DNA from: Hydrogenophaga sp.
GTDB taxonomy: Bacteria; Pseudomonadota; Gammaproteobacteria; Burkholderiales; Burkholderiaceae_C
DNA length: 64,000 nt
Assembly (NCBI RefSeq): GCF_019635465.1
Contig: NZ_JAHBZK010000005.1
Coordinates: 1-64,000, forward strand
Reading direction: 5' to 3'
In this document: piece after piece, positions 17,260-37,695 of the stretch
Layout of the letters: the number at the start of each line of letters is the position of its first letter
How positions within the stretch are numbered: the first letter of the stretch is position 1
The notes under the pieces: model-generated
What the model was told of the DNA's origin: nothing
What the model saw: the letters and a program-made list of their open reading frames with translations, nothing else
Databases searched by the model: none
Position numbers and translations under genes: made by a program

Positions 17260-18180
17260 TCAGAGCGGACTGACGCCCTGCCATTTCCCGCTCTTCACCT
17301 GGTCGCGCGTGAGATGGATCAGCAAGTCGCGAACGGCCTCAGCAGCCATTGACGTTGCCGCCGACTTCGCGGTGCACAGCGATACCCGTCGCGTGAGTCG
17401 TGGATGCAAGGGCGTGAGCTTGATCCGCCTGGCCGCCACCGAGTCACTCACGCTGGCCCAGGTCAGAACGCTGCAAACAGTGCCTGACTCAACCAGCCGC
17501 CGCATGATGCCCAGGGAATTTGCAACGATGGACGGCGCCAGCGGCAACATGCCATGCGCACGCACAGCGGCGTCGACCATGGCGCGAACCCCGTGTCGCT
17601 GACCAGGCAATGTCAGCGGCAAGGTACCAAGCTGCTGAATGCCAACACAATCGCCCAGCACCCGCTCGGGTGTCGAAGCCAGAAACAGCTCCTCCTGCAT
17701 CAGCATCACGGCATCCACCACCTCAAGGTCCTGATCGTTGACCAGAATCGCCAGATCAAGCTGCCCGGCGTTGAGCTGGCGCAACAGGTTGCCGCTGAGC
17801 TCCTCATAGATCTCGAGACTGATCGATGGATGGTGGCGCTGCAACGCTTCGATCAGCGGCGCAGCAAACTGCATGGCCGAGCTTTGTGGCAACCCCAACG
17901 ACACCGACCCTCGCAATTCGTCTCGGCATCGCGTCACGGCGTTCGGCAGGTCGTCCACCAGTTTGACCACCCGCTGCGCATGGGCAAAGAAGGCCTCGCC
18001 ATGCTCCGTCATCTGCACGCCGTTGTGCCGTCGATGAAACAAGGCGCAACCCAGTTCACCTTCCAGTTGCGCCATGCGCTGGCTCAAAGCCGGCTGGGCA
18101 ATGTGCAGCGCGAGCGAGGCTTTGGAGAAGCTGCCCAACTCGGCAATTTTCAGGAAGTACTTCAGCTGTCGGAGTTCCAT
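17260..18180 (-). CDS. LysR-family regulator, NAC-like
   Basis: A 306-residue LysR protein with the N-terminal winged helix (MELRQLKYFLKIAELGSFSKAS, recognition helix AQPALSQRMAQLEGELG) and a ligand-binding domain from about residue 90. The N-terminal wording is close to the NAC/Cbl branch, in which the helix reads HIAQPALSQ. Its 3' end is 286 bases from the binding-protein gene, its likely target. Inducer unknown. Confidence 0.88.
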   Translation of the reverse strand: MELRQLKYFLKIAELGSFSKASLALHIAQPALSQRMAQLEGELGCALFHRRHNGVQMTEHGEAFFAHAQRVVKLVDDLPNAVTRCRDELRGSVSLGLPQSSAMQFAAPLIEALQRHHPSISLEIYEELSGNLLRQLNAGQLDLAILVNDQDLEVVDAVMLMQEELFLASTPERVLGDCVGIQQLGTLPLTLPGQRHGVRAMVDAAVRAHGMLPLAPSIVANSLGIMRRLVESGTVCSVLTWASVSDSVAARRIKLTPLHPRLTRRVSLCTAKSAATSMAAEAVRDLLIHLTRDQVKSGKWQGVSPL

Positions 18181-29319: not shown

Positions 29320-29769
29320 ATGGCTTCACCACGCCCCACCGCCGACGACCTGCTCAAGCTTGATCACCAGCTCTGCTTCGCGCTGTATTCCGCGTCGCTG
29401 GCCATGACCAAGCTCTACAAGCCCTGGCTGGAGGAACTCGGCCTCACCTACCCGCAGTACATCGCCATGCTGGCGCTGTGGGAGGAAGACGGCATGACGG
29501 TGTCCACCCTGGGCGAGCGCCTGCATCTCGACTCCGGTACGCTGACGCCCCTGCTCAAGCGCCTGGAAGCCGCCGACTACGTGGTCCGCCTGCGTGACGT
29601 CGACGACGAGCGCCGCGTGCGCATCCGCCTGACCACGGCGGGGCGACGCCTGCGCACACGCGCCGCACGCATCCCGGCCTGTGTGCTCGAAGCCACCCAA
29701 TGTTCACCGGGCGATGCCATCGCCCTGACCCAGCAGGTCCGCGCGCTGCGCGATCGGCTGGGCGAATGA
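29320..29769 (+). CDS. ohrR: Organic hydroperoxide-sensing MarR-family repressor OhrR
   Basis: A 149-residue winged-helix protein. The redox-sensing Cys is in [11 protein letters not shown] (Cys19), with Tyr36/Tyr47-type partners in [12 protein letters not shown]; Cys121 and Cys128 near the C-terminus make it the two-cysteine (Xanthomonas) class. Winged-helix segment: [20 protein letters not shown]. Oxidation by organic peroxides would lift repression of its own gene and ohr, which lies 47 bases downstream. Two inverted repeats lie just before its start. Confidence 0.93.
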
Positions 29770-29816
29770 GTTCATACCCACCCGCTGCCCCGCAGCCCAC
29801 AACCCCAGGAGGCCCC

Positions 29817-30245
29817 ATGCCCACCACCCTCGACAAAGTTCTGTACACCGCCCACGCACACACCACCGGTGGCCGCGACGGCGCTTCGCGCTCCGATGAC
29901 GGCCTGCTCGAGGTCAAGCTCTCGCCGCCGAAGGCCATGGGTGGCGCCGGCACCGGCACCAACCCGGAACAACTCTTCGCATCGGGCTACTCGGCCTGCT
30001 TCATGGGCGCGCTCAAGCATGTGGCGGGCATGAAGAAAGTGCCCGTGCCGGCGACCGCCGCCATTGACGCGGAAGTCGACATCGGCCCGGTTCCCCAGGG
30101 TTTCGGCATCGCCGTGCGCATGACCATCCACCTGCCGGGCATGGACCGCGCCGTCGCGCAGGACCTGATCGACACCGCCCACCAGGTGTGCCCCTACTCG
30201 AATGCCACCCGCGGCAACATTCCGGTCACGCTGACCCTGGGCTGA
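29817..30245 (+). CDS. ohr: Organic hydroperoxide reductase Ohr
   Basis: A 142-residue thiol peroxidase of the Ohr/OsmC family. The two catalytic cysteines are Cys61 in YSACFMGAL and Cys125 in QVCPYSNATRGN. It reduces organic and lipid hydroperoxides, using lipoylated proteins as electron donors in known cases. AGGAGG stands before the ATG and fixes the start. An intrinsic terminator follows the gene, closing the ohrR-ohr unit. Confidence 0.96.
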   Translation: MPTTLDKVLYTAHAHTTGGRDGASRSDDGLLEVKLSPPKAMGGAGTGTNPEQLFASGYSACFMGALKHVAGMKKVPVPATAAIDAEVDIGPVPQGFGIAVRMTIHLPGMDRAVAQDLIDTAHQVCPYSNATRGNIPVTLTLG

Positions 30246-30305: not shown

Positions 30306-30653
30306 CTATTTGTTCTTGGGTTCGTGAATCACCGTGCTGGTGCCCACGCCAACGCCAGCGCGCACGCCGCTGTTGCCAATTTCGGTGCTGGCGCCCACGC
30401 CGGCCCCCGCGGTGACGCGCCCGGACTGGTTGACCCCCACCCCCACGCCGACCGGCCCGACGCTGGTGCCCACACCCAGGTTCACCCCATGGTTGCTGGC
30501 CCCCACACCGATCGTCACCGGCCCGACCGGTATGCCGATGCCCACGCCGACGCCCATGCTGCCGCAGCCGCTGAGCAGCAGCGCCACCAGCGCCAACAGT
30601 GCCGCCGGGGCGGCCAGGCGGCGCTGGTTGGCCACAAGGCGTGAGAGGAACAT
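30306..30653 (-). CDS. Glycine/valine-rich repeat lipoprotein, unknown function
   Basis: A 115-residue lipoprotein with hydrophobic signal and LLLSGC lipobox (Cys30). The mature part is made of short G-V/I-G repeats (GVGVGIGIPVGPVTIGVG and similar, about every 8-16 residues), then a Lys-rich end. Such alternating Gly/Val strands could form a beta structure. No functional family is recognised. It is convergent with ohr and lies 77 bases downstream of the response regulator operon on the same strand. Confidence 0.75.
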   Translation of the reverse strand: MFLSRLVANQRRLAAPAALLALVALLLSGCGSMGVGVGIGIPVGPVTIGVGASNHGVNLGVGTSVGPVGVGVGVNQSGRVTAGAGVGASTEIGNSGVRAGVGVGTSTVIHEPKNK

Positions 30654-30730: not shown

Positions 30731-31690
30731 TTACACGCCCTGCGGCTCGGCGGCCTCGATGGCGGTACTGAGCCAATCCGCGGGCGGCGCCAGCGCATCG
30801 GCGGTGCGCACCGAACACACGGCGCCATCGACGCTCAGGCGCGCCGCACCCCCCACCCAGAGCAACCAGGCCAGGCCCGCCGCGTCACCGTCGTTGACCA
30901 GAGAGCCCGGAGCGCCGCCCAGCACCTCGGTGAACGGGGTGCAATCGACCAGACGGCAGGCGCCGTCCACGACCGCGCCGCCAAGCGCTTGCGCCAGCAG
31001 CGACAGACGCTGATCGGCCGAGGGCGCCGCGGTGTTCCATCGATCCCACCAGCTGCGAACAGAGCGCACCAGGCGCACGGCCCGATCGGCCTCGGCACGC
31101 TGCAAATCGACGTGGTCCCAGTGGCGCCAGTCGACGGCCGGTGACGCGACCCCGGCGGCCAGCGCCGCGCGCACATAGGTGTGCAGCGCCGCCTCGTACC
31201 CGTCGCCGCCGAGGGATGCACCCATCAGGCACAGCTGGCCCAGGCGCTGGCCGAGCAAGCGACCCTGCTCGACCATGAGCTTCTGCCGCAGCAGGCTGTC
31301 GCGCTCGGCGCGCAACTCGGCCAGATCGAGCGCATTGCGCAGGTCGGCCCGCAGGTGCTCCAGCGTCCAGGGCTTGCTGATGTACCGATAGATTTCGCCG
31401 CTGTTGATGGCCTCGATCGCTTCGCCGATGTCGGAATAGGCCGTGGTCAGCATGCGCACCACCGTCGGGTGGTGGTCGCGCGCATGGCGCAGCAGCTCGT
31501 TGCCGCGCGCGCCGGGCATGCGCTGATCGCACACCAGCACGGCGATATCGGCACCGTTGGCATCGAGCACCGATCGCCCTTCGTCCACCGACGAGGCAGT
31601 CAGCACGGGTGCCAGCGGCCCCACCAGGCGCTCGAAGTACTTGAGCGCCATGGCCTCGTCGTCCACGTACAGGATCTTCTTGGGGTTCAC
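30731..31690 (-). CDS. phcQ: Response regulator, PhcQ-like
   Basis: A 319-residue protein. Residues 1-125 are a receiver domain: VDDE at 9-12, phospho-acceptor Asp55 in VLVCDQRMP, and Lys106 in YISKPW. A short coiled linker (LRAERDSLLRQKLMVEQGRLLGQ) joins a C-terminal domain of about 170 residues that I cannot assign; it has no helix-turn-helix that I can see. It is last in a four-gene operon that matches phcBSRQ in order. The GTG start overlaps the previous stop by four bases. In Ralstonia, PhcQ works with PhcR to control PhcA. Confidence 0.8.
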   Translation of the reverse strand: MNPKKILYVDDEAMALKYFERLVGPLAPVLTASSVDEGRSVLDANGADIAVLVCDQRMPGARGNELLRHARDHHPTVVRMLTTAYSDIGEAIEAINSGEIYRYISKPWTLEHLRADLRNALDLAELRAERDSLLRQKLMVEQGRLLGQRLGQLCLMGASLGGDGYEAALHTYVRAALAAGVASPAVDWRHWDHVDLQRAEADRAVRLVRSVRSWWDRWNTAAPSADQRLSLLAQALGGAVVDGACRLVDCTPFTEVLGGAPGSLVNDGDAAGLAWLLWVGGAARLSVDGAVCSVRTADALAPPADWLSTAIEAAEPQGV

Positions 31691-32868
31691 TTGTCGTCCT
31701 CCTGACTTATGTCGGGGAAATGCAGCACCACCGTGGCGCCTCCCCCCGGTGTGTCGCGTACCGATATGTCGCCGCCGACCGAGACCATCACCCGGCGGCA
31801 GAACAGCAAGCCCATGCCGCTGCCGCCCGACCCAGGCCGGCTGTTGACGGGCTCGCGCGTGAGGCGGTGGATGAGCTCGGGTGGGATGCCGGGCCCGTTG
31901 TCGGCCACCACCAGCGCCGGGCGCTCGGCCGAGCCGTCGGGCGACGCCAGTCGACACAGGGAGATGTCGATGGCGGGCGCGGGGTCGTTCTGCGCGGCCT
32001 GTGCCTGCAGGGCGTTCTTCACCAGCGTGCACAGCACCAGATACAACAGGTCGCGCTGGCGTGCCGGCAGCGCGAAATCGGCGCCGAGGCTGGACCGCAG
32101 CCGCTGGCGCTCGTGCTCGTGCTCGTCGAAGGGATAGTCCTGCTCGACGGCGCGCACAAGATCGCTGGCACTCAATGCCTCGACCGCTTCGGGCCGATAG
32201 GCCTCGCGGGCGGTGTTCACGAAACTGGTGACCAGCGACTGCGCGTAGTCGGCCCGCCGCTGGGCGGCCTCGATCATGCGCAAGGTATCGCCCGGCGCGG
32301 CTTGCAAGGTGTCAGCACCGGGCGCATCACCACCCGCATGCCGGTCGCGCAAGGCGGTGAGGTAGCCGCTGACGGTGGCCAAGGGCGTGCGGACCTCGTG
32401 CGCCAGAAAGCCCAGGGTCTCGCGCAGCATGGCCGCGCGGCGCTCGCCGAGCGCGCGGTCGTTGGCACGGCGGCGCGATTCGTCGCAGGCCGTACGCAGC
32501 ACCTGCCGCGTCAATGGTTCATCCAGCGGCTTTTCCAGGATGTGTTCCACGCGGCCGTGGTTGACCGCCTGCATGGCCACGTCCTTGTCGGCATAGGCCG
32601 ACATCAGCACGCGCACCACGTGCGGATGGGCCTCGCAGACCGCGGCCAGCAGATCGACGCCGTTGCGCTCGGGCATGCGGTAGTCGGTGAGCAGCACCGC
32701 CACCTCGTCGCTGCGTTCAGCCAACGAGGCCAGCGCCTCGACCACACCGCCGGCCACATGCACCGTGAACTCGTCACCGTAGCGGCGCGCGAACCACTTG
32801 CAGGCCTGCGGTTCGTCGTCGACGAAGAGCACCGCGTGCGGTCCGGAAGAAAGCGGGGGCTGGCTCAT
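31687..32868 (-). CDS. phcR: Receiver domain-histidine kinase hybrid, PhcR-like
   Basis: A 393-residue soluble protein with a reversed hybrid layout. The receiver is first (VDDE 17-19, Asp62 in LLTDYRMP, Lys113 in LEKPL), then a kinase module with His157 in LGFLAHEVRTPL, Asn285 in LVKNALQAQ, DNGPGI at 323-328 and a G2 box GSGGSGMGLL. An output made of a kinase domain is unusual and is the hallmark of PhcR. It overlaps both neighbours by four bases. Probable role: pass phosphate from the membrane sensor and alter PhcA-type regulator activity. Confidence 0.85.
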   Translation of the reverse strand: MSQPPLSSGPHAVLFVDDEPQACKWFARRYGDEFTVHVAGGVVEALASLAERSDEVAVLLTDYRMPERNGVDLLAAVCEAHPHVVRVLMSAYADKDVAMQAVNHGRVEHILEKPLDEPLTRQVLRTACDESRRRANDRALGERRAAMLRETLGFLAHEVRTPLATVSGYLTALRDRHAGGDAPGADTLQAAPGDTLRMIEAAQRRADYAQSLVTSFVNTAREAYRPEAVEALSASDLVRAVEQDYPFDEHEHERQRLRSSLGADFALPARQRDLLYLVLCTLVKNALQAQAAQNDPAPAIDISLCRLASPDGSAERPALVVADNGPGIPPELIHRLTREPVNSRPGSGGSGMGLLFCRRVMVSVGGDISVRDTPGGGATVVLHFPDISQEDDK

Positions 32869-34190
32869 ACGGGACGGGGAAGGTCGAAGCGGAATTCGGT
32901 CCAGGCGCCGGGCTGGCTGTCCACCGACAGCGTGCCACCGTGGCGCTGAATGATGCCGTAGCTGATGCTCAGGCCCAGTCCCAGGCCGCTGCCCACGTCG
33001 CGGGTGGTGAAGAAGGGTTCGAACACGCGCGCCAGGTTCTGCTCGCTGATGCCGGTGCCGTTGTCACGCACGCTCACCACCAGCCGGCTGCCTTCGATGA
33101 CCGCCTTGACCCGGATCTCGGCTTGGTCGCGACCGGCCTGGCGCACGGCATGGGCGGCATTGCTCAGCAGGTTGATGACCACGCCGATCAGCGCCGGCTC
33201 ATCGCCCAGGACGTGGGTGTCCTGGGGCAGATCCAGGTTCACCTCGACCCCTTTCAGATCGAAGCCCGCCAGCCGGATGGCCGAACGCACGGCGTTCTCC
33301 AGCAGGAAGGGCCGCAGGCTTTCGTCGCCCGGTTTCTGGTAGGCGAAGGTCTTGAGGTCGGTGACGATGTTCTGGATGCGCACCAGACCTTCACGCGCGT
33401 CATCCAGGCTTTCCTTGAGCAAGGCGTCCTGTTGCGCGGGCGGCAGTTGCCGCCCCATGTCGATGGCCATCAGGCTGAAGTTCACCGGGTTGTTGAGTTC
33501 GTGCAGCAGACCCGCCGACAGCGTGCCGATGGCCGCCATCTTCTCGCGATGTACCAGTTGCCCCTTGACCTCGGTCAGTGTCTGGTTGATGTCCACCAGC
33601 GACGCGTTCTTGACACGCACCTCGCGCTGAAGCGCGAACAGGCGCAAACGCGCCCGCTCGTTGAACCAGGTGCACACGGCCGCCGCAGCGGCCGAGAAGC
33701 CGATGAACAAGGCGTTGGTGACCACCATGCCCGTGGGCGCCAGCCCGTTGGCGTTGAGCGCGCAGGCCAGCAGGTACATGCCCAGCGTGATGACGCCGAA
33801 GCTGACCGACTCGAAAAAGCTGATCGGCAGGATGATGCCCACGGCATAGAGCGCCAGGTGCAGACCCACGAAATAGATCGACGCCGCGCCATCGGTCTGC
33901 TGGATCATCCAGGCGATCATGGCCTGCGGCAGCAGCAGCCAGATCATGGTCAGTCCGCGCACATGGCGTCGCCCGCCCGGGAAGAACAGCCAAACCAGGA
34001 TCATGGCCGTCAGCAGCGAGACCACCACCCGGGCGGCCAGAAACTGCACCCAACGATCCGGGTAGCTCGACAAGTCCAGCCCGACGCCACCGAGCACCAG
34101 GACGATGGAGGTGATGCTGCCCGCGCGGCTGTAGGTGACACGAAAGTCGGCCAGCTCCTCCTCGTAGTCCTGGGCAACCGGCGGCTTCAT
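32865..34190 (-). CDS. phcS: Membrane sensor histidine kinase, PhcS-like
   Basis: A 441-residue sensor kinase. Six hydrophobic helices fill residues ~24-176 with almost no periplasmic loop, the layout of lipid-like-signal sensors (PhcS, LqsS, CqsS types). The kinase follows: His230 in SAGLLHELNNP, Asn344 in LLSNAAHAV, DNGTGI at 376-381, GSGLGLGLS at 400-408. It would detect a membrane-permeable hydroxy-fatty-acid ester. Overlaps the methyltransferase gene by four bases, so synthase and sensor are coupled in translation. Confidence 0.87.
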   Translation of the reverse strand: MKPPVAQDYEEELADFRVTYSRAGSITSIVLVLGGVGLDLSSYPDRWVQFLAARVVVSLLTAMILVWLFFPGGRRHVRGLTMIWLLLPQAMIAWMIQQTDGAASIYFVGLHLALYAVGIILPISFFESVSFGVITLGMYLLACALNANGLAPTGMVVTNALFIGFSAAAAAVCTWFNERARLRLFALQREVRVKNASLVDINQTLTEVKGQLVHREKMAAIGTLSAGLLHELNNPVNFSLMAIDMGRQLPPAQQDALLKESLDDAREGLVRIQNIVTDLKTFAYQKPGDESLRPFLLENAVRSAIRLAGFDLKGVEVNLDLPQDTHVLGDEPALIGVVINLLSNAAHAVRQAGRDQAEIRVKAVIEGSRLVVSVRDNGTGISEQNLARVFEPFFTTRDVGSGLGLGLSISYGIIQRHGGTLSVDSQPGAWTEFRFDLPRPV

Positions 34191-35623
34191 GGGCTGCGCT
34201 CGGCAACGCTGGTCACGGGGCTGGCCACCGGTGCGCCGAACTCGGCGAACAGGTTGACGCCGGTGTCATCGGTGTAGAGCCGGATCGGCCCCCGCGTCTC
34301 GGGCACGATGGCACGCATCTGCGCCTCGTCGCGGTAGATGAGGTGCCACTCCAGCAAATGCTCCATGCCGAAACGCTCGGGGTTGCCGGCGTGCACGTTG
34401 GTCACCATGACGCGCGCGCCCGGGTTGCAGCGAAACAGGAAGTAGCGCATCAGCCGGTTGCACACCCTATCCGACAGGTAGTCGAACAGCCCGGCGCAAT
34501 AGACGATGTCCTCGCCCTCGCCCGGCGCCGGTGGGTCCTGGCGCGCGGGGCGCTTGAGCAGGTCGTGCACCGACTCGTGCACGTACTCGACCGACACGCT
34601 GCGCCCGTGTTGCCGCGAGGTTTCCTCGATCCGGGCACGGGTGTAGTCGAGCGTCTCCCGGCTGAAGTCGACCAGGGTGATGTGCAGGCGAGACAGGTCA
34701 CGCCCGCTCTCGATGAGCCGTTGCAGTTCGACCGCCGGGCCGCAGCCGACATTGAGCACCCGCACGACGCGCCCGTCCTGCTCGGCGGCGTCGATCGCCT
34801 TGGTGAGGAAGTCCACCAGGATGTCGATGCGGTTGCGGTGCGCCTGCGCCACCGCAGCGCGCAGGAACATGGCGTTGACGATCTGGAAGTAAGTGCTGTT
34901 GCCTTGGCGCGGGTCGCCCAGGATCTGGTTGACCATCTCGTAGTCACCGGCGTAGCCCAGGGGTTTGGCAAAGGTGCGCCAGACAAACGGCGCGCGCAAC
35001 AGCAGGGGGTGCAAGGCACCTTGCGCGAAGGCACGGTGCAAGGGTGCGTCCTCTTCGGGCAGGCCGGCGGCCTCGGCCTCAAGGCGCACCAGAAACTCCT
35101 TGCCCTTGACCATCAAGGGCTCGGCCATGGCCACGAAGACCTCATCGGAGAGCCGGCCGTCCGGCCCTTTGGGCAGCGACTCGATCAGATCGGCCTGGTC
35201 CACCCAGCGCGCCGTCTCGGCCAGAAAGGCGCGGAACTCGCTGATGGCCACCTGGTAGCTGTGGCGCACCTTGAAGCGCTCTTGCCAATCCTCAACGAAA
35301 CGCTGGGCTTCGTCGCGCACCTGCTCGACATGGCCACGCACCGCATTGAGGTCGGACCACTCGTCGATGAGGGCCACCGACACCACAGCCATGAGGCCGG
35401 TGTTGACCATGCCGACCACCACCGCCTTGCCCTTGTACAGCGCCTGCTCGCCCGAGCGGATGGTCAGCTCGTTGAGCACCTCGCTGACCTGCACGATGGA
35501 GTACGGGTTGTAGATCTCCATCACCAGTGAGCGCCGCTGCACACTGGTCAGCGTGCCGCGAGCGGACTCTCCCTGGCTGTTGCGAAACGAGACGGCAGGA
35601 TCGTAGGGGCGCTGGAAGTGCAC
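34187..35623 (-). CDS. phcB: Methyltransferase, PhcB-like hydroxy-fatty-acid methyl ester synthase
   Basis: A 478-residue protein. Residues ~10-90 resemble a degenerate PilZ-like barrel (MEIYNPYSIVQVSEVL, YKGKAVVVGMVNTGL). A helical middle follows, then a SAM-dependent methyltransferase domain with motif I VLNVGCGPAVEL at 289-300 and VDFSRETLDYTRARI. In Ralstonia, PhcB methylates 3-hydroxy fatty acids to form the signals 3-OH PAME or 3-OH MAME. Homology to the EF synthesis protein family is by recognition. The first codon is GTG and its ribosome site is weak. Gene lies 100 bases downstream of htpG. Confidence 0.8.
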   Translation of the reverse strand: MHFQRPYDPAVSFRNSQGESARGTLTSVQRRSLVMEIYNPYSIVQVSEVLNELTIRSGEQALYKGKAVVVGMVNTGLMAVVSVALIDEWSDLNAVRGHVEQVRDEAQRFVEDWQERFKVRHSYQVAISEFRAFLAETARWVDQADLIESLPKGPDGRLSDEVFVAMAEPLMVKGKEFLVRLEAEAAGLPEEDAPLHRAFAQGALHPLLLRAPFVWRTFAKPLGYAGDYEMVNQILGDPRQGNSTYFQIVNAMFLRAAVAQAHRNRIDILVDFLTKAIDAAEQDGRVVRVLNVGCGPAVELQRLIESGRDLSRLHITLVDFSRETLDYTRARIEETSRQHGRSVSVEYVHESVHDLLKRPARQDPPAPGEGEDIVYCAGLFDYLSDRVCNRLMRYFLFRCNPGARVMVTNVHAGNPERFGMEHLLEWHLIYRDEAQMRAIVPETRGPIRLYTDDTGVNLFAEFGAPVASPVTSVAERSP

Positions 35624-35723: not shown

Positions 35724-37586
35724 TCAGACCAGCAGACTATTGATCCGCCGTACATATGCCGCGGGGTCCTCAGGCAGGCCACCCTCGGCCAGCAAGGCCT
35801 GGTCGAACAGCACCTGGGCCAGGTCGTCGAAGCGCTCGCTGGTCTCCAGTTTCTTCACCAGGGCGTGGCCGGAATTGACCTCCAGGATGGGTTTGACCTC
35901 GGGCGCCTGCTGGCCGGCCTGCTTGAGCAGGCGGGCCAGCTGCATCGAATAGTCGCCGTCCTCGACCACGAGGCAAGCGGGTGAGTCGACCAGGCGCGAG
36001 GTCACGCGCACGTCCTTGGCCTTGTCCTTGAGGCTCTCCTTCAGGCGCTCCAGCACCGGCTTGAAGGTTTCGGCGGCGGCTTCGGCGGCCTTCTTTTCGG
36101 CCTCGTCCTGCAGGTCGCCCAGATCGACCGCGCCCTTGGCCACGCTTTGCAGCGGCGTGCCGTCGAACTCGGGCAGGAAGGACAGTGCCCATTCGTCCAC
36201 CCGGTCCACCATCAGCAGCACCTCGATGCCCTTCTGGCGGAACACCTCCAGCTGCGGGCTGTTGCGCGCCGCGGCCAGCGTGTCGGCCGTGAGGTAGTAG
36301 ATGGCCTTCTGCCCCTCCTTCATGCGCGCCTTGTAGTCGGCCAGCGCCGTCGGCGCGTCCTGCGTGGTGCTGGCAAAGCGCAGCAGTTTGGCGAGGCGGT
36401 CGCGGTTGGCAAAGTCCTCGCCCAGGCCTTCCTTGAGGACAGACCCGAACTCGGCGTAGAACCGGCCGTACTTGTCGGCGTCCTTGGCCAGGTCGTCGAG
36501 CAGGCCCAGCACGCGGCGGGCGTTGCCTTCGCGGATGGCCTTGACGTCCCGGCTTTCCTGCAGCAGCTCGCGGCTGACGTTGAGCGGCAGGTCGCTGGAA
36601 TCGACCACGCCCTTGACCCAGCGCAGGTAGGCCGGCATGAGGCTCTCGGCCTCGTCCATGATGAATACACGCTTGACGTAGAGCTTGATGCCGGCCTTGC
36701 GCTCACGGTTCCAGAGGTCTTGCGGCGCCTTGGACGGGATGTAGAGCAGTTGCGTGTACTCGGTGCTGCCCTCCACCCGGTTGTGGCTCCAGGCCAGCGG
36801 CGCTTCGCTGTCGTAGCTGATGTTCTTGTAGAACTCGACGTACTGCTCGTCGCTGATGTCCTTCTTGGGGCGCGACCACAGCGCGTTGGCCGAGTTGACC
36901 GCCTCCCATTCGTCCTTGAGCACGTACTCGCTCTTGTCGGCGTCCCAATCCTCTTTCTGCATGCGGATGGGCAGGCTGATGTGGTCGCTGTACTTACCGA
37001 TGATGGACTTGAGCTTCCAGTGGTTGAGGTACTCGGTCTTGTCCTCGCGCAGGTGCAGCGTCACGCTGGTGCCGCGGGCCGCGCGCTCGATGGTCTCGAC
37101 CTCGAAGTCGCCACTGCCGCCACTGGTCCAGCGCACGCCTTCGGCCGCCGGCAGGCCGGCGCGGCGGCTCTCGACGACGATGCGGTCGGCCACGATGAAG
37201 CCCGAATAAAACCCCACGCCGAACTGGCCGATGAGCTGGGCGTCGGACTTCTGTTCGCCCGTCAGGCGGCTCACGAAGTCGCGCGTGCCGCTCTTGGCGA
37301 TGGTGCCCAGGTGGTCGATCGCCTCCTGCGCGCTCATGCCGATGCCGTTGTCGGTGATCGTGATGGTGCGCGCGTCCTTGTCGAAGGCGACACGCACTTC
37401 GAGATCGGGCGCGTCTTCATACAACCCGGCGTTGTTGAGGGCTTCGAAGCGCAGCTTGTCGCAGGCGTCCGACGCGTTGGAGACCAGCTCGCGCAGGAAG
37501 ATGTCGGGGTTGGAGTACAGCGAGTGCGTGACCAGGTGCAGCAGCTGGGCCACTTCGGCCTGGAAGGAATGGGTCTGTTTGCTCAT
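35724..37586 (-). CDS. htpG: Chaperone HtpG (Hsp90)
   Basis: A 620-residue Hsp90, normal for bacteria. The GHKL ATPase N-terminus has [25 protein letters not shown] and [11 protein letters not shown]; the middle domain carries the catalytic-arginine loop [13 protein letters not shown]; the C-terminus is the dimer domain. The protein remodels client proteins with ATP under heat stress. A heat-shock promoter is visible 82-110 bases upstream. The start at [16 protein letters not shown] is the family's usual N-terminus. Confidence 0.97.
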
Positions 37587-37667
37587 GACAGGTTCAAGGT
37601 ATGACTGGAATGGATGCCCGCGCGGACGGCGCGTGCCGGCCCAGCGGCAGGCGACAACCCGCTGCCG

Positions 37668-37695
37668 ACTTGGGGATGCATGGGTCGTTTTCAAG
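37668..37695 (-). promoter_or_regulatory. Sigma-32 heat-shock promoter of htpG
   Basis: On the minus strand CTTGAAA (37695-37689) is followed after 13 bases by CCCCAAGT (37675-37668). The sigma-32 consensus is CTTGAAA, 12-14 bases, CCCCATNT, so the -35 is perfect and the -10 has CCCCA. Expected RNA start is near 37661, leaving a 5' leader of about 75 bases. The -35 lies only 9 bases after the upstream gene's stop. Confidence 0.8.

What the first reader, a model, noticed from the sequence alone, without database searches (positions are those of the whole stretch)
30731..35623. A complete PhcBSRQ-like quorum-sensing operon
Four minus-strand genes, each overlapping the next by four bases, follow the order synthase, membrane sensor, receiver-kinase, regulator. 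The reversed hybrid (receiver first, kinase as output, Asp62 and His157) and the six-helix sensor with no periplasmic domain are distinctive of Ralstonia PhcR and PhcS. A methyltransferase at the head is expected to make a 3-hydroxy fatty acid methyl ester. The organism suggested is not a plant pathogen, so the system may control surface, motility or catabolic behaviour. No phcA-type LysR gene lies within the window, so the output is elsewhere.
Basis: partly seen in the sequence, partly recalled or inferred. Interest (0 to 1): 0.8.

Follow-up and report, generated by a model that had tools for sequence, protein, structure and literature searches.

The report
PhcBSRQ signalling operon without PhcA
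A bacterium of the Hydrogenophaga group carries the same four-gene cell-density signalling operon that the plant pathogen Ralstonia uses, but its genome shows no clear copy of PhcA, the master regulator that the operon controls in Ralstonia, so the signal probably acts through another, still unknown, output.

Summary
Four minus-strand genes (35623 to 30731), each overlapping the next by 4 bases, encode PhcB, PhcS, PhcR and PhcQ. PhcB is the only such protein in the genome and is 60-61% identical to Cupriavidus and Ralstonia sp. PhcB. Matches to all four in the order B-S-R-Q occur in 75 of 80 related loci; the other 5 run off contig ends. PhcS His230, PhcR Asp62 and His157, and PhcQ Asp55 are unchanged in every aligned row. 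Such operons are known: a 2023 paper already lists Hydrogenophaga. What departs from the Ralstonia model is the output. PhcA is intact in 7 Cupriavidus/Ralstonia genomes and split in an eighth; none of 24 other phcB-bearing genomes tested (13 of them Hydrogenophaga) has a clear orthologue, and no PhcA-like gene lies beside fur in 6 genomes inspected. Against this, one LysR here, only 31% identical and patchily distributed, is PhcA's reciprocal best hit and sister clade. The genome also carries an Lqs (alpha-hydroxyketone) cluster. Most likely this is a working 3-hydroxy fatty acid methyl ester system whose PhcQ/PhcR act on something other than PhcA. Signal and output are inferred, not shown.

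The parts
34187..35623 (-). phcB: class I SAM-dependent methyltransferase, predicted 3-hydroxy fatty acid methyl ester synthase
   Evidence: Methyltransf_25 hit; 60-61% identical to Cupriavidus and Ralstonia sp. proteins, 85% to the nearest Hydrogenophaga; one match in the genome
32865..34190 (-). phcS: membrane sensor histidine kinase, six hydrophobic segments, His230
   Evidence: 51-73% identical in the loci
31687..32868 (-). phcR: receiver (Asp62) followed by a histidine kinase (His157)
   Evidence: best match of Cupriavidus PhcR in this genome
30731..31690 (-). phcQ: receiver (Asp55) with a C-terminal half without a Pfam family
30306..30653 (-). small Gly/Val-rich predicted lipoprotein directly downstream of phcQ, possibly co-transcribed
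   Evidence: a similar gene follows phcQ on the same strand within 25-154 bases in 13 of 76 loci examined; no Pfam family
35724..37694 (-). htpG-type chaperone gene upstream of phcB (neighbour, not part of the system; name from recalled resemblance, no family search made)
   Evidence: this gene cluster is found in 32 of 81 stretches (80 loci plus the window)

Best explanation
This is a complete, intact phcBSRQ operon of a Hydrogenophaga-type betaproteobacterium. PhcB methylates a 3-hydroxy fatty acid to a diffusible methyl ester; PhcS senses it in the membrane and autophosphorylates on His230; phosphate and contacts pass to PhcR (Asp62, with its own kinase part) and PhcQ (Asp55). In Ralstonia PhcQ then binds and stabilises the LysR regulator PhcA. 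Here there is no clear PhcA orthologue, so the output of PhcQ/PhcR is most likely another partner. Shown here: gene content and order, conserved phosphorylation residues, kinship of PhcB and PhcR, and no clear PhcA in 24 of 24 tested phcB-bearing genomes outside Ralstonia/Cupriavidus. Inferred: signal chemistry, phosphorelay, and the other partner.
For: Family and operon. One strong PhcB match per genome. PhcR best match. PhcA, N-terminal piece: 88-98% in 4 of 4 Cupriavidus/Ralstonia genomes; in the other 11 of 15 genomes at most 48% (10 genomes) or nothing at E<=1e-12 (1 genome), while unrelated LysRs of Cupriavidus reach 49%. Full-length PhcA: 92-94%, E<1e-205, in 3 of 3 Cupriavidus; in the other 17 of 20 genomes best match 26-32%, E>=2.9e-36, against 3.3e-37 for a non-PhcA LysR of Cupriavidus itself. 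Four genomes are in both lists of misses, hence 24. No PhcA-like match within about 1.5 kb of fur in 6 of 6 genomes. Between Hydrogenophaga and Cupriavidus/Ralstonia the PhcQ receiver is 62% and the C-terminal half 31% identical.
Against: A LysR on contig C9 is a reciprocal best hit of PhcA and its family is sister to PhcA with support 0.991 in a sampled tree, so a fast-diverged counterpart is not excluded. The assembly is 88% complete, though single-contig relatives of 99-100% completeness (G022, G024, G025, G007, G005) gave no PhcA either. Whole-genome reciprocal searches for PhcS and PhcQ were not made. No sigma-70-like promoter was found. The C-terminal half of PhcQ is also the more variable half within groups (0.54 and 0.59 within Hydrogenophaga and Cupriavidus/Ralstonia), so its divergence alone does not show a new partner.
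Confidence: 0.8

Rival explanations
1. The operon acts through a diverged PhcA counterpart, the C9-family LysR (G000:C9:92341-93276).
For: Reciprocal best hit in 2 of 2 Cupriavidus genomes, with a clear margin (2.3e-31 and 2.2e-28 against 3.4e-19 and 7.4e-20); sister clade to PhcA with support 0.991 among at most 67 selected LysR sequences.
Against: 31% identical while PhcB is about 60% identical. Near relatives (E<1e-60) in 9 of 28 phcB-bearing and 1 of 8 phcB-lacking genomes of the genus, Fisher p=0.40. No match at E<=1e-25 in the single-contig phcB-bearing genomes G022, G025, G007 and G005 (in three of these four only 57 of 63-69 candidates were scored). Two further paralogues in this genome.
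Confidence: 0.15
2. The operon feeds into the Lqs (alpha-hydroxyketone) system of the same genome, for example through LqsR.
For: lqsS-lqsR-lqsA cluster on contig C13 (LqsA passes its NCBIfam cut-off; lqsS and lqsR named by position and weak matches). In 7 of 8 other Hydrogenophaga genomes searched the lqsR-like gene was placed about 40-63 kb from phcB (three of the seven assume that contig numbers match). PMC10653808 reports phcX/lqsR beside phc genes in Hydrogenophaga, Cupriavidus and Ralstonia.
Against: Loose linkage, no direct evidence of cross-talk. The LqsR here matches Ralstonia sp. PhcX at only 34% over residues 95-248 of 345.
Confidence: 0.15
3. The operon is a relic, or serves only signal interference without a regulon of its own.
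For: No clear PhcA; among the recurring neighbour clusters the only regulator that I recognised is a MarR gene beside an OsmC-type gene.
Against: Catalytic and phosphorylation residues are conserved; phcB is present in 28 of 36 genomes of the genus sample.
Confidence: 0.07

Closest known systems
phcBSRQ operon of Ralstonia pseudosolanacearum / R. solanacearum (PMC8578825, PMC11960443, PMC13320629)
   Same: Gene order, domain architecture, receiver-plus-kinase PhcR, receiver-only PhcQ; the PhcS histidine is residue 230 as in strain OE1-1 (in Ralstonia sp. A12 and ASV6 it is 235 with the starts that my script chose).
   Different: There the output is PhcA, which PhcQ binds; here no clear PhcA. 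PhcR 38% and PhcQ 43% identical to Ralstonia sp. A12 and ASV6; the species complex itself was not compared.
phcBSRQ + phcA of Cupriavidus metallidurans CH34 (PMC2864759, passages)
   Same: Same operon outside the plant pathogens; there PhcA activation stimulates motility and the signal may be a variant of 3-OH PAME.
   Different: CH34 has phcA next to fur; here no PhcA-like gene near fur.
phc genes in Hydrogenophaga noted in PMC10653808, Fig. 7 legend
   Same: Same genus, already listed with phcX/lqsR adjacent to the phc genes.
   Different: The parts that I read do not say whether phcA is present there; the figure itself and the tables could not be read.
Lqs system of Legionella and many Proteobacteria (PMC10653808)
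   Same: Membrane kinase plus response regulator; occurs in this genome too.
   Different: PLP-dependent synthase and a different signal.

Membership tests
Phc quorum-sensing system | PhcB-family methyltransferase | tested here: met
   60-61% identity to Cupriavidus and Ralstonia sp. PhcB, one match in the genome
Phc quorum-sensing system | Operon order phcB-phcS-phcR-phcQ | tested here: met
   matches to all four in order in 75 of 80 loci, the 5 others cut by contig ends
Phc quorum-sensing system | PhcS membrane kinase with autophosphorylated His230 | tested here: met
   Sequence feature only: His at 230, H in 78 of 79 rows, 1 gap; six hydrophobic segments. Role of H230 from the abstract of PMC11960443
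Phc quorum-sensing system | PhcR = receiver + histidine kinase; PhcQ = receiver without DNA-binding domain | tested here: met
   PhcR Asp62 in 76 of 78 (2 gaps), His157 in 77 of 78 (1 gap); PhcQ Asp55 in 77 of 77, one of which (L056) is a PhcR receiver picked by mistake
Phc quorum-sensing system | PhcA LysR regulator as output | tested here: not met
   No clear orthologue in this genome; a 31% relative is, however, a reciprocal best hit
Phc quorum-sensing system | 3-hydroxy fatty acid methyl ester made by PhcB and sensed by PhcS | not testable with these tools
   Needs chemistry
Phc quorum-sensing system | PhcX beside the operon (as in Ralstonia) | tested here: not met
   The only PhcX match in this genome at E<=1e-10 is on contig C13, 34% identical over part of its length, beside lqsA
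Lqs system (lqsA-lqsS-lqsR) | PLP-dependent alpha-hydroxyketone synthase with a kinase and a regulator beside it | tested here: met
   For G000:C13, not for the window operon: NF005526 549 bits against a cut-off of 428; neighbours

The most novel reading that the evidence does not exclude
PhcBSRQ is an older, self-contained signalling module of the Burkholderiales that works without PhcA. PhcA is a later, Ralstonia/Cupriavidus-specific output joined to it, and Paraburkholderia took the operon from the Cupriavidus side without PhcA. Hydrogenophaga, Polaromonas and Variovorax then hold an undiscovered, possibly ancestral, output reached through the fast-evolving C-terminal half of PhcQ. (Probability lowered from 0.5 to 0.4 on checking: Janthinobacterium, which lacks PhcA, branches between Ralstonia and Cupriavidus, so loss of PhcA is a fair alternative.)
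Probability: 0.4. Interest if true: 0.6.

Novelty: new variant of a known kind. Interest (0 to 1): 0.42.

Why it matters
How PhcS, PhcR and PhcQ pass the signal to PhcA is not settled in Ralstonia (PMC8578825, PMC13320629). Genomes that keep the whole sensor module but show no PhcA let one ask what the module does by itself and which part of PhcQ meets PhcA, in harmless type strains. It also widens a system mostly studied as a virulence switch to common environmental bacteria.

Tried and rejected
PilZ-like N-terminal domain of PhcB: suspected by eye, not supported by Pfam on 41 members or by a PDB profile search; dropped. PDB profile search of PhcQ: the 40 chains listed match its receiver part only; Pfam gives no credible family for the C-terminal half. 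E. coli LrhA as a proxy for PhcA gave no clear PhcA candidate; replaced by PhcA found through its place between gapA and fur in Ralstonia sp. A12, which agrees with PMC2864759 (phcA next to fur). The first region fetched from that genome was the wrong contig. A regex for LysR genes in three fetched stretches printed nothing, although one of them holds phcA, so it was useless. The C9 LysR as PhcA orthologue: kept only as a rival. Promoter scan: none found; terminator-like sites 2 against 2.2 expected. One search used a wrong reading frame for the small lipoprotein; one search replaces it.

Not tested: whole-genome reciprocal searches for PhcS and PhcQ; any R. solanacearum species complex genome; signal chemistry; the figure and supplements of PMC10653808, which may already show where phcA is absent. 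Nine searches of the held library showed me no statement of that absence, but I read only parts: PMC10653808 passages and section 17; PMC8578825 abstract and sections 4 and 16; PMC13320629 abstract and section 2.6; PMC11960443 abstract; PMC2864759 and PMC6989110 passages; all other papers as search listings only.
Full report
Setting. The window is part of a 241-kb contig of a 3.9-Mb genome, 88% complete.

What is there. Four minus-strand genes fill 30731-35623 with three 4-base overlaps. Pfam gives a SAM methyltransferase, a histidine kinase, a receiver followed by a histidine kinase, and a receiver with an unassigned C-terminal half. None of the NCBIfam models listed reaches its cut-off (the best 25 shown for three of the proteins). 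In other loci the neighbours overlap by 4 or 1 bases in 12 of 78 (B-S), 19 of 77 (S-R) and 49 of 76 (R-Q) cases, with starts chosen by script.

Family. The methyltransferase has a strong match in 28 of 36 genomes of the genus sample, this one included. In an order-wide sample 8 of 300 genomes hold a near full-length homologue of 55% identity or more, and 3 more only weak partial hits. A scan of named genomes found 249 relatives, the best 80 kept, among them Hydrogenophaga, Polaromonas, Variovorax, Pseudorhodoferax, Ramlibacter, Cupriavidus, Ralstonia spp., Paraburkholderia and Janthinobacterium. In 75 of 80 there are matches to all four genes in the order B-S-R-Q; the 5 others (L056, L058, L062, L068, L092) end with their contigs. 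Residues expected to carry phosphate are unchanged in every row without a gap: PhcS His230 in 78 of 79, PhcR Asp62 in 76 of 78, PhcR His157 in 77 of 78, PhcQ Asp55 in 77 of 77 (the row L056 of PhcQ is a PhcR receiver picked by mistake). Residue 230 is the number reported for PhcS of R. pseudosolanacearum OE1-1 (abstract of PMC11960443). Cupriavidus PhcR finds the window PhcR as best match in this genome; in the close relative G022 a lone second PhcR scores slightly above the operon copy (271.8 against 259 bits).

The missing output. In Ralstonia the operon acts through PhcA, and PhcQ binds PhcA (PMC13320629). I found PhcA in Ralstonia sp. A12 between gapA and fur, split between two frames in that assembly, and intact in Cupriavidus; the place next to fur agrees with PMC2864759. 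A 114-aa N-terminal piece matched 4 of 4 other Cupriavidus/Ralstonia genomes at 88-98%; the other 11 of the 15 genomes gave at most 48% (10 genomes) or nothing at E<=1e-12 (G072), while non-PhcA LysRs of Cupriavidus reach 49%. Full-length Cupriavidus PhcA matched 3 of 3 further Cupriavidus genomes (92-94%, E<1e-205); in the other 17 of 20 the best match was 26-32%, E>=2.9e-36, no better than Cupriavidus' own other LysRs (3.3e-37). Four genomes are in both lists of misses (G000, G022, and two reached under different handles, G035=G341 and G328=G345, judged from contig and position), so 24 phcB-bearing genomes outside Ralstonia/Cupriavidus show no clear PhcA, 13 of them Hydrogenophaga, and 8 inside have it, one as the split copy. 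Intact copies are 76-94% identical to that of C. pinatubonensis. A PhcA query finds nothing (E<=0.01) within about 1.5 kb of fur in 6 of 6 genomes inspected, and the neighbours there look by eye like other genes.

Evidence the other way. The best PhcA match in this genome, a LysR on contig C9, finds PhcA as its own best match in 2 of 2 Cupriavidus genomes, and its family is sister to PhcA (support 0.991) in a tree of at most 67 selected LysRs. But it is 31% identical and has paralogues; among 36 genomes of the genus its near relatives occur in 9 of 28 with phcB and 1 of 8 without (p=0.40; in several genomes only 57 candidates were scored). I hold it as a rival.

Evolution. In a midpoint-rooted FastTree of the four joined alignments (66 operons) six Paraburkholderia/Burkholderia operons lie inside the Cupriavidus group, and Janthinobacterium lies between Ralstonia and Cupriavidus; I did not print the inner supports. 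3 of 3 Paraburkholderia genomes and the 1 Janthinobacterium genome tested lack a clear PhcA. So the operon can move and persist without PhcA, but loss of PhcA explains the pattern as well as late gain. The PhcQ receiver is 62% identical between 24 Hydrogenophaga-type and 12 Cupriavidus/Ralstonia-type rows, the C-terminal half 31%; within these groups the half is 54% and 59% identical.

Second system. The genome also carries an lqsS-lqsR-lqsA cluster on contig C13. In 7 of 8 other Hydrogenophaga genomes searched the lqsR-like gene was placed about 40-63 kb from phcB (the eighth was not placed, and three of the seven assume that contig numbers match). PMC10653808 already reports such proximity.

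Mechanism. Most likely PhcB makes a 3-hydroxy fatty acid methyl ester, PhcS senses it, and PhcR and PhcQ relay it to a partner other than PhcA. The family and the missing PhcA rest on results here; chemistry, phosphorelay and partner are inferred. Cupriavidus metallidurans shows that signal and phenotype can differ from Ralstonia's (PMC2864759).

Verdict. A further phcBSRQ operon, in a genus where phc genes were already noted. What earns attention is that the complete sensor module is widely kept without a clear PhcA. I did not see this stated in what I read, but the figure and tables most likely to show it could not be read.

Noticed in passing
30306-30653 (-): A small Gly/Val-rich predicted lipoprotein follows phcQ on the same strand; a similar gene follows phcQ within 25-154 bases in 13 of 76 loci examined, all placed with Hydrogenophaga in the tree or by name. 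Could be an output of the system or a passenger.
   Followed up: partly
L220:7343-11667 (G000:C13): lqsS-lqsR-lqsA cluster; LqsA passes the NCBIfam cut-off for alpha-hydroxyketone autoinducer synthases. If C13's right end abutted C25's left end, it would lie about 48 kb from phcB, as in relatives.
   Followed up: partly
L243:12856-14022 (G022): A lone second PhcR, 49% identical to the window PhcR, with no PhcB, PhcS or PhcQ match beside it in the 19 kb fetched; about 10 kb off, a gene that looks by eye like an acyl-transfer type synthase next to a membrane kinase-like gene (no family search).
   Followed up: partly
L199:1501-2436 (G000:C9): LysR family that is sister to PhcA in the sampled tree, with two further paralogues on contig C11.
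   Followed up: partly
29320-30245 (+): MarR regulator and OsmC-type protein side by side, perhaps an organic peroxide pair; the MarR cluster recurs in 25 of 81 stretches.
   Followed up: no
L158:2424-3532 (Ralstonia sp. A12): phcA is split between two reading frames in this assembly; sequencing error or real mutation is unknown.
   Followed up: no
17260-18180 (-): LysR gene nearest to NAC and CynR models, below their cut-offs; no match to PhcA.
   Followed up: partly
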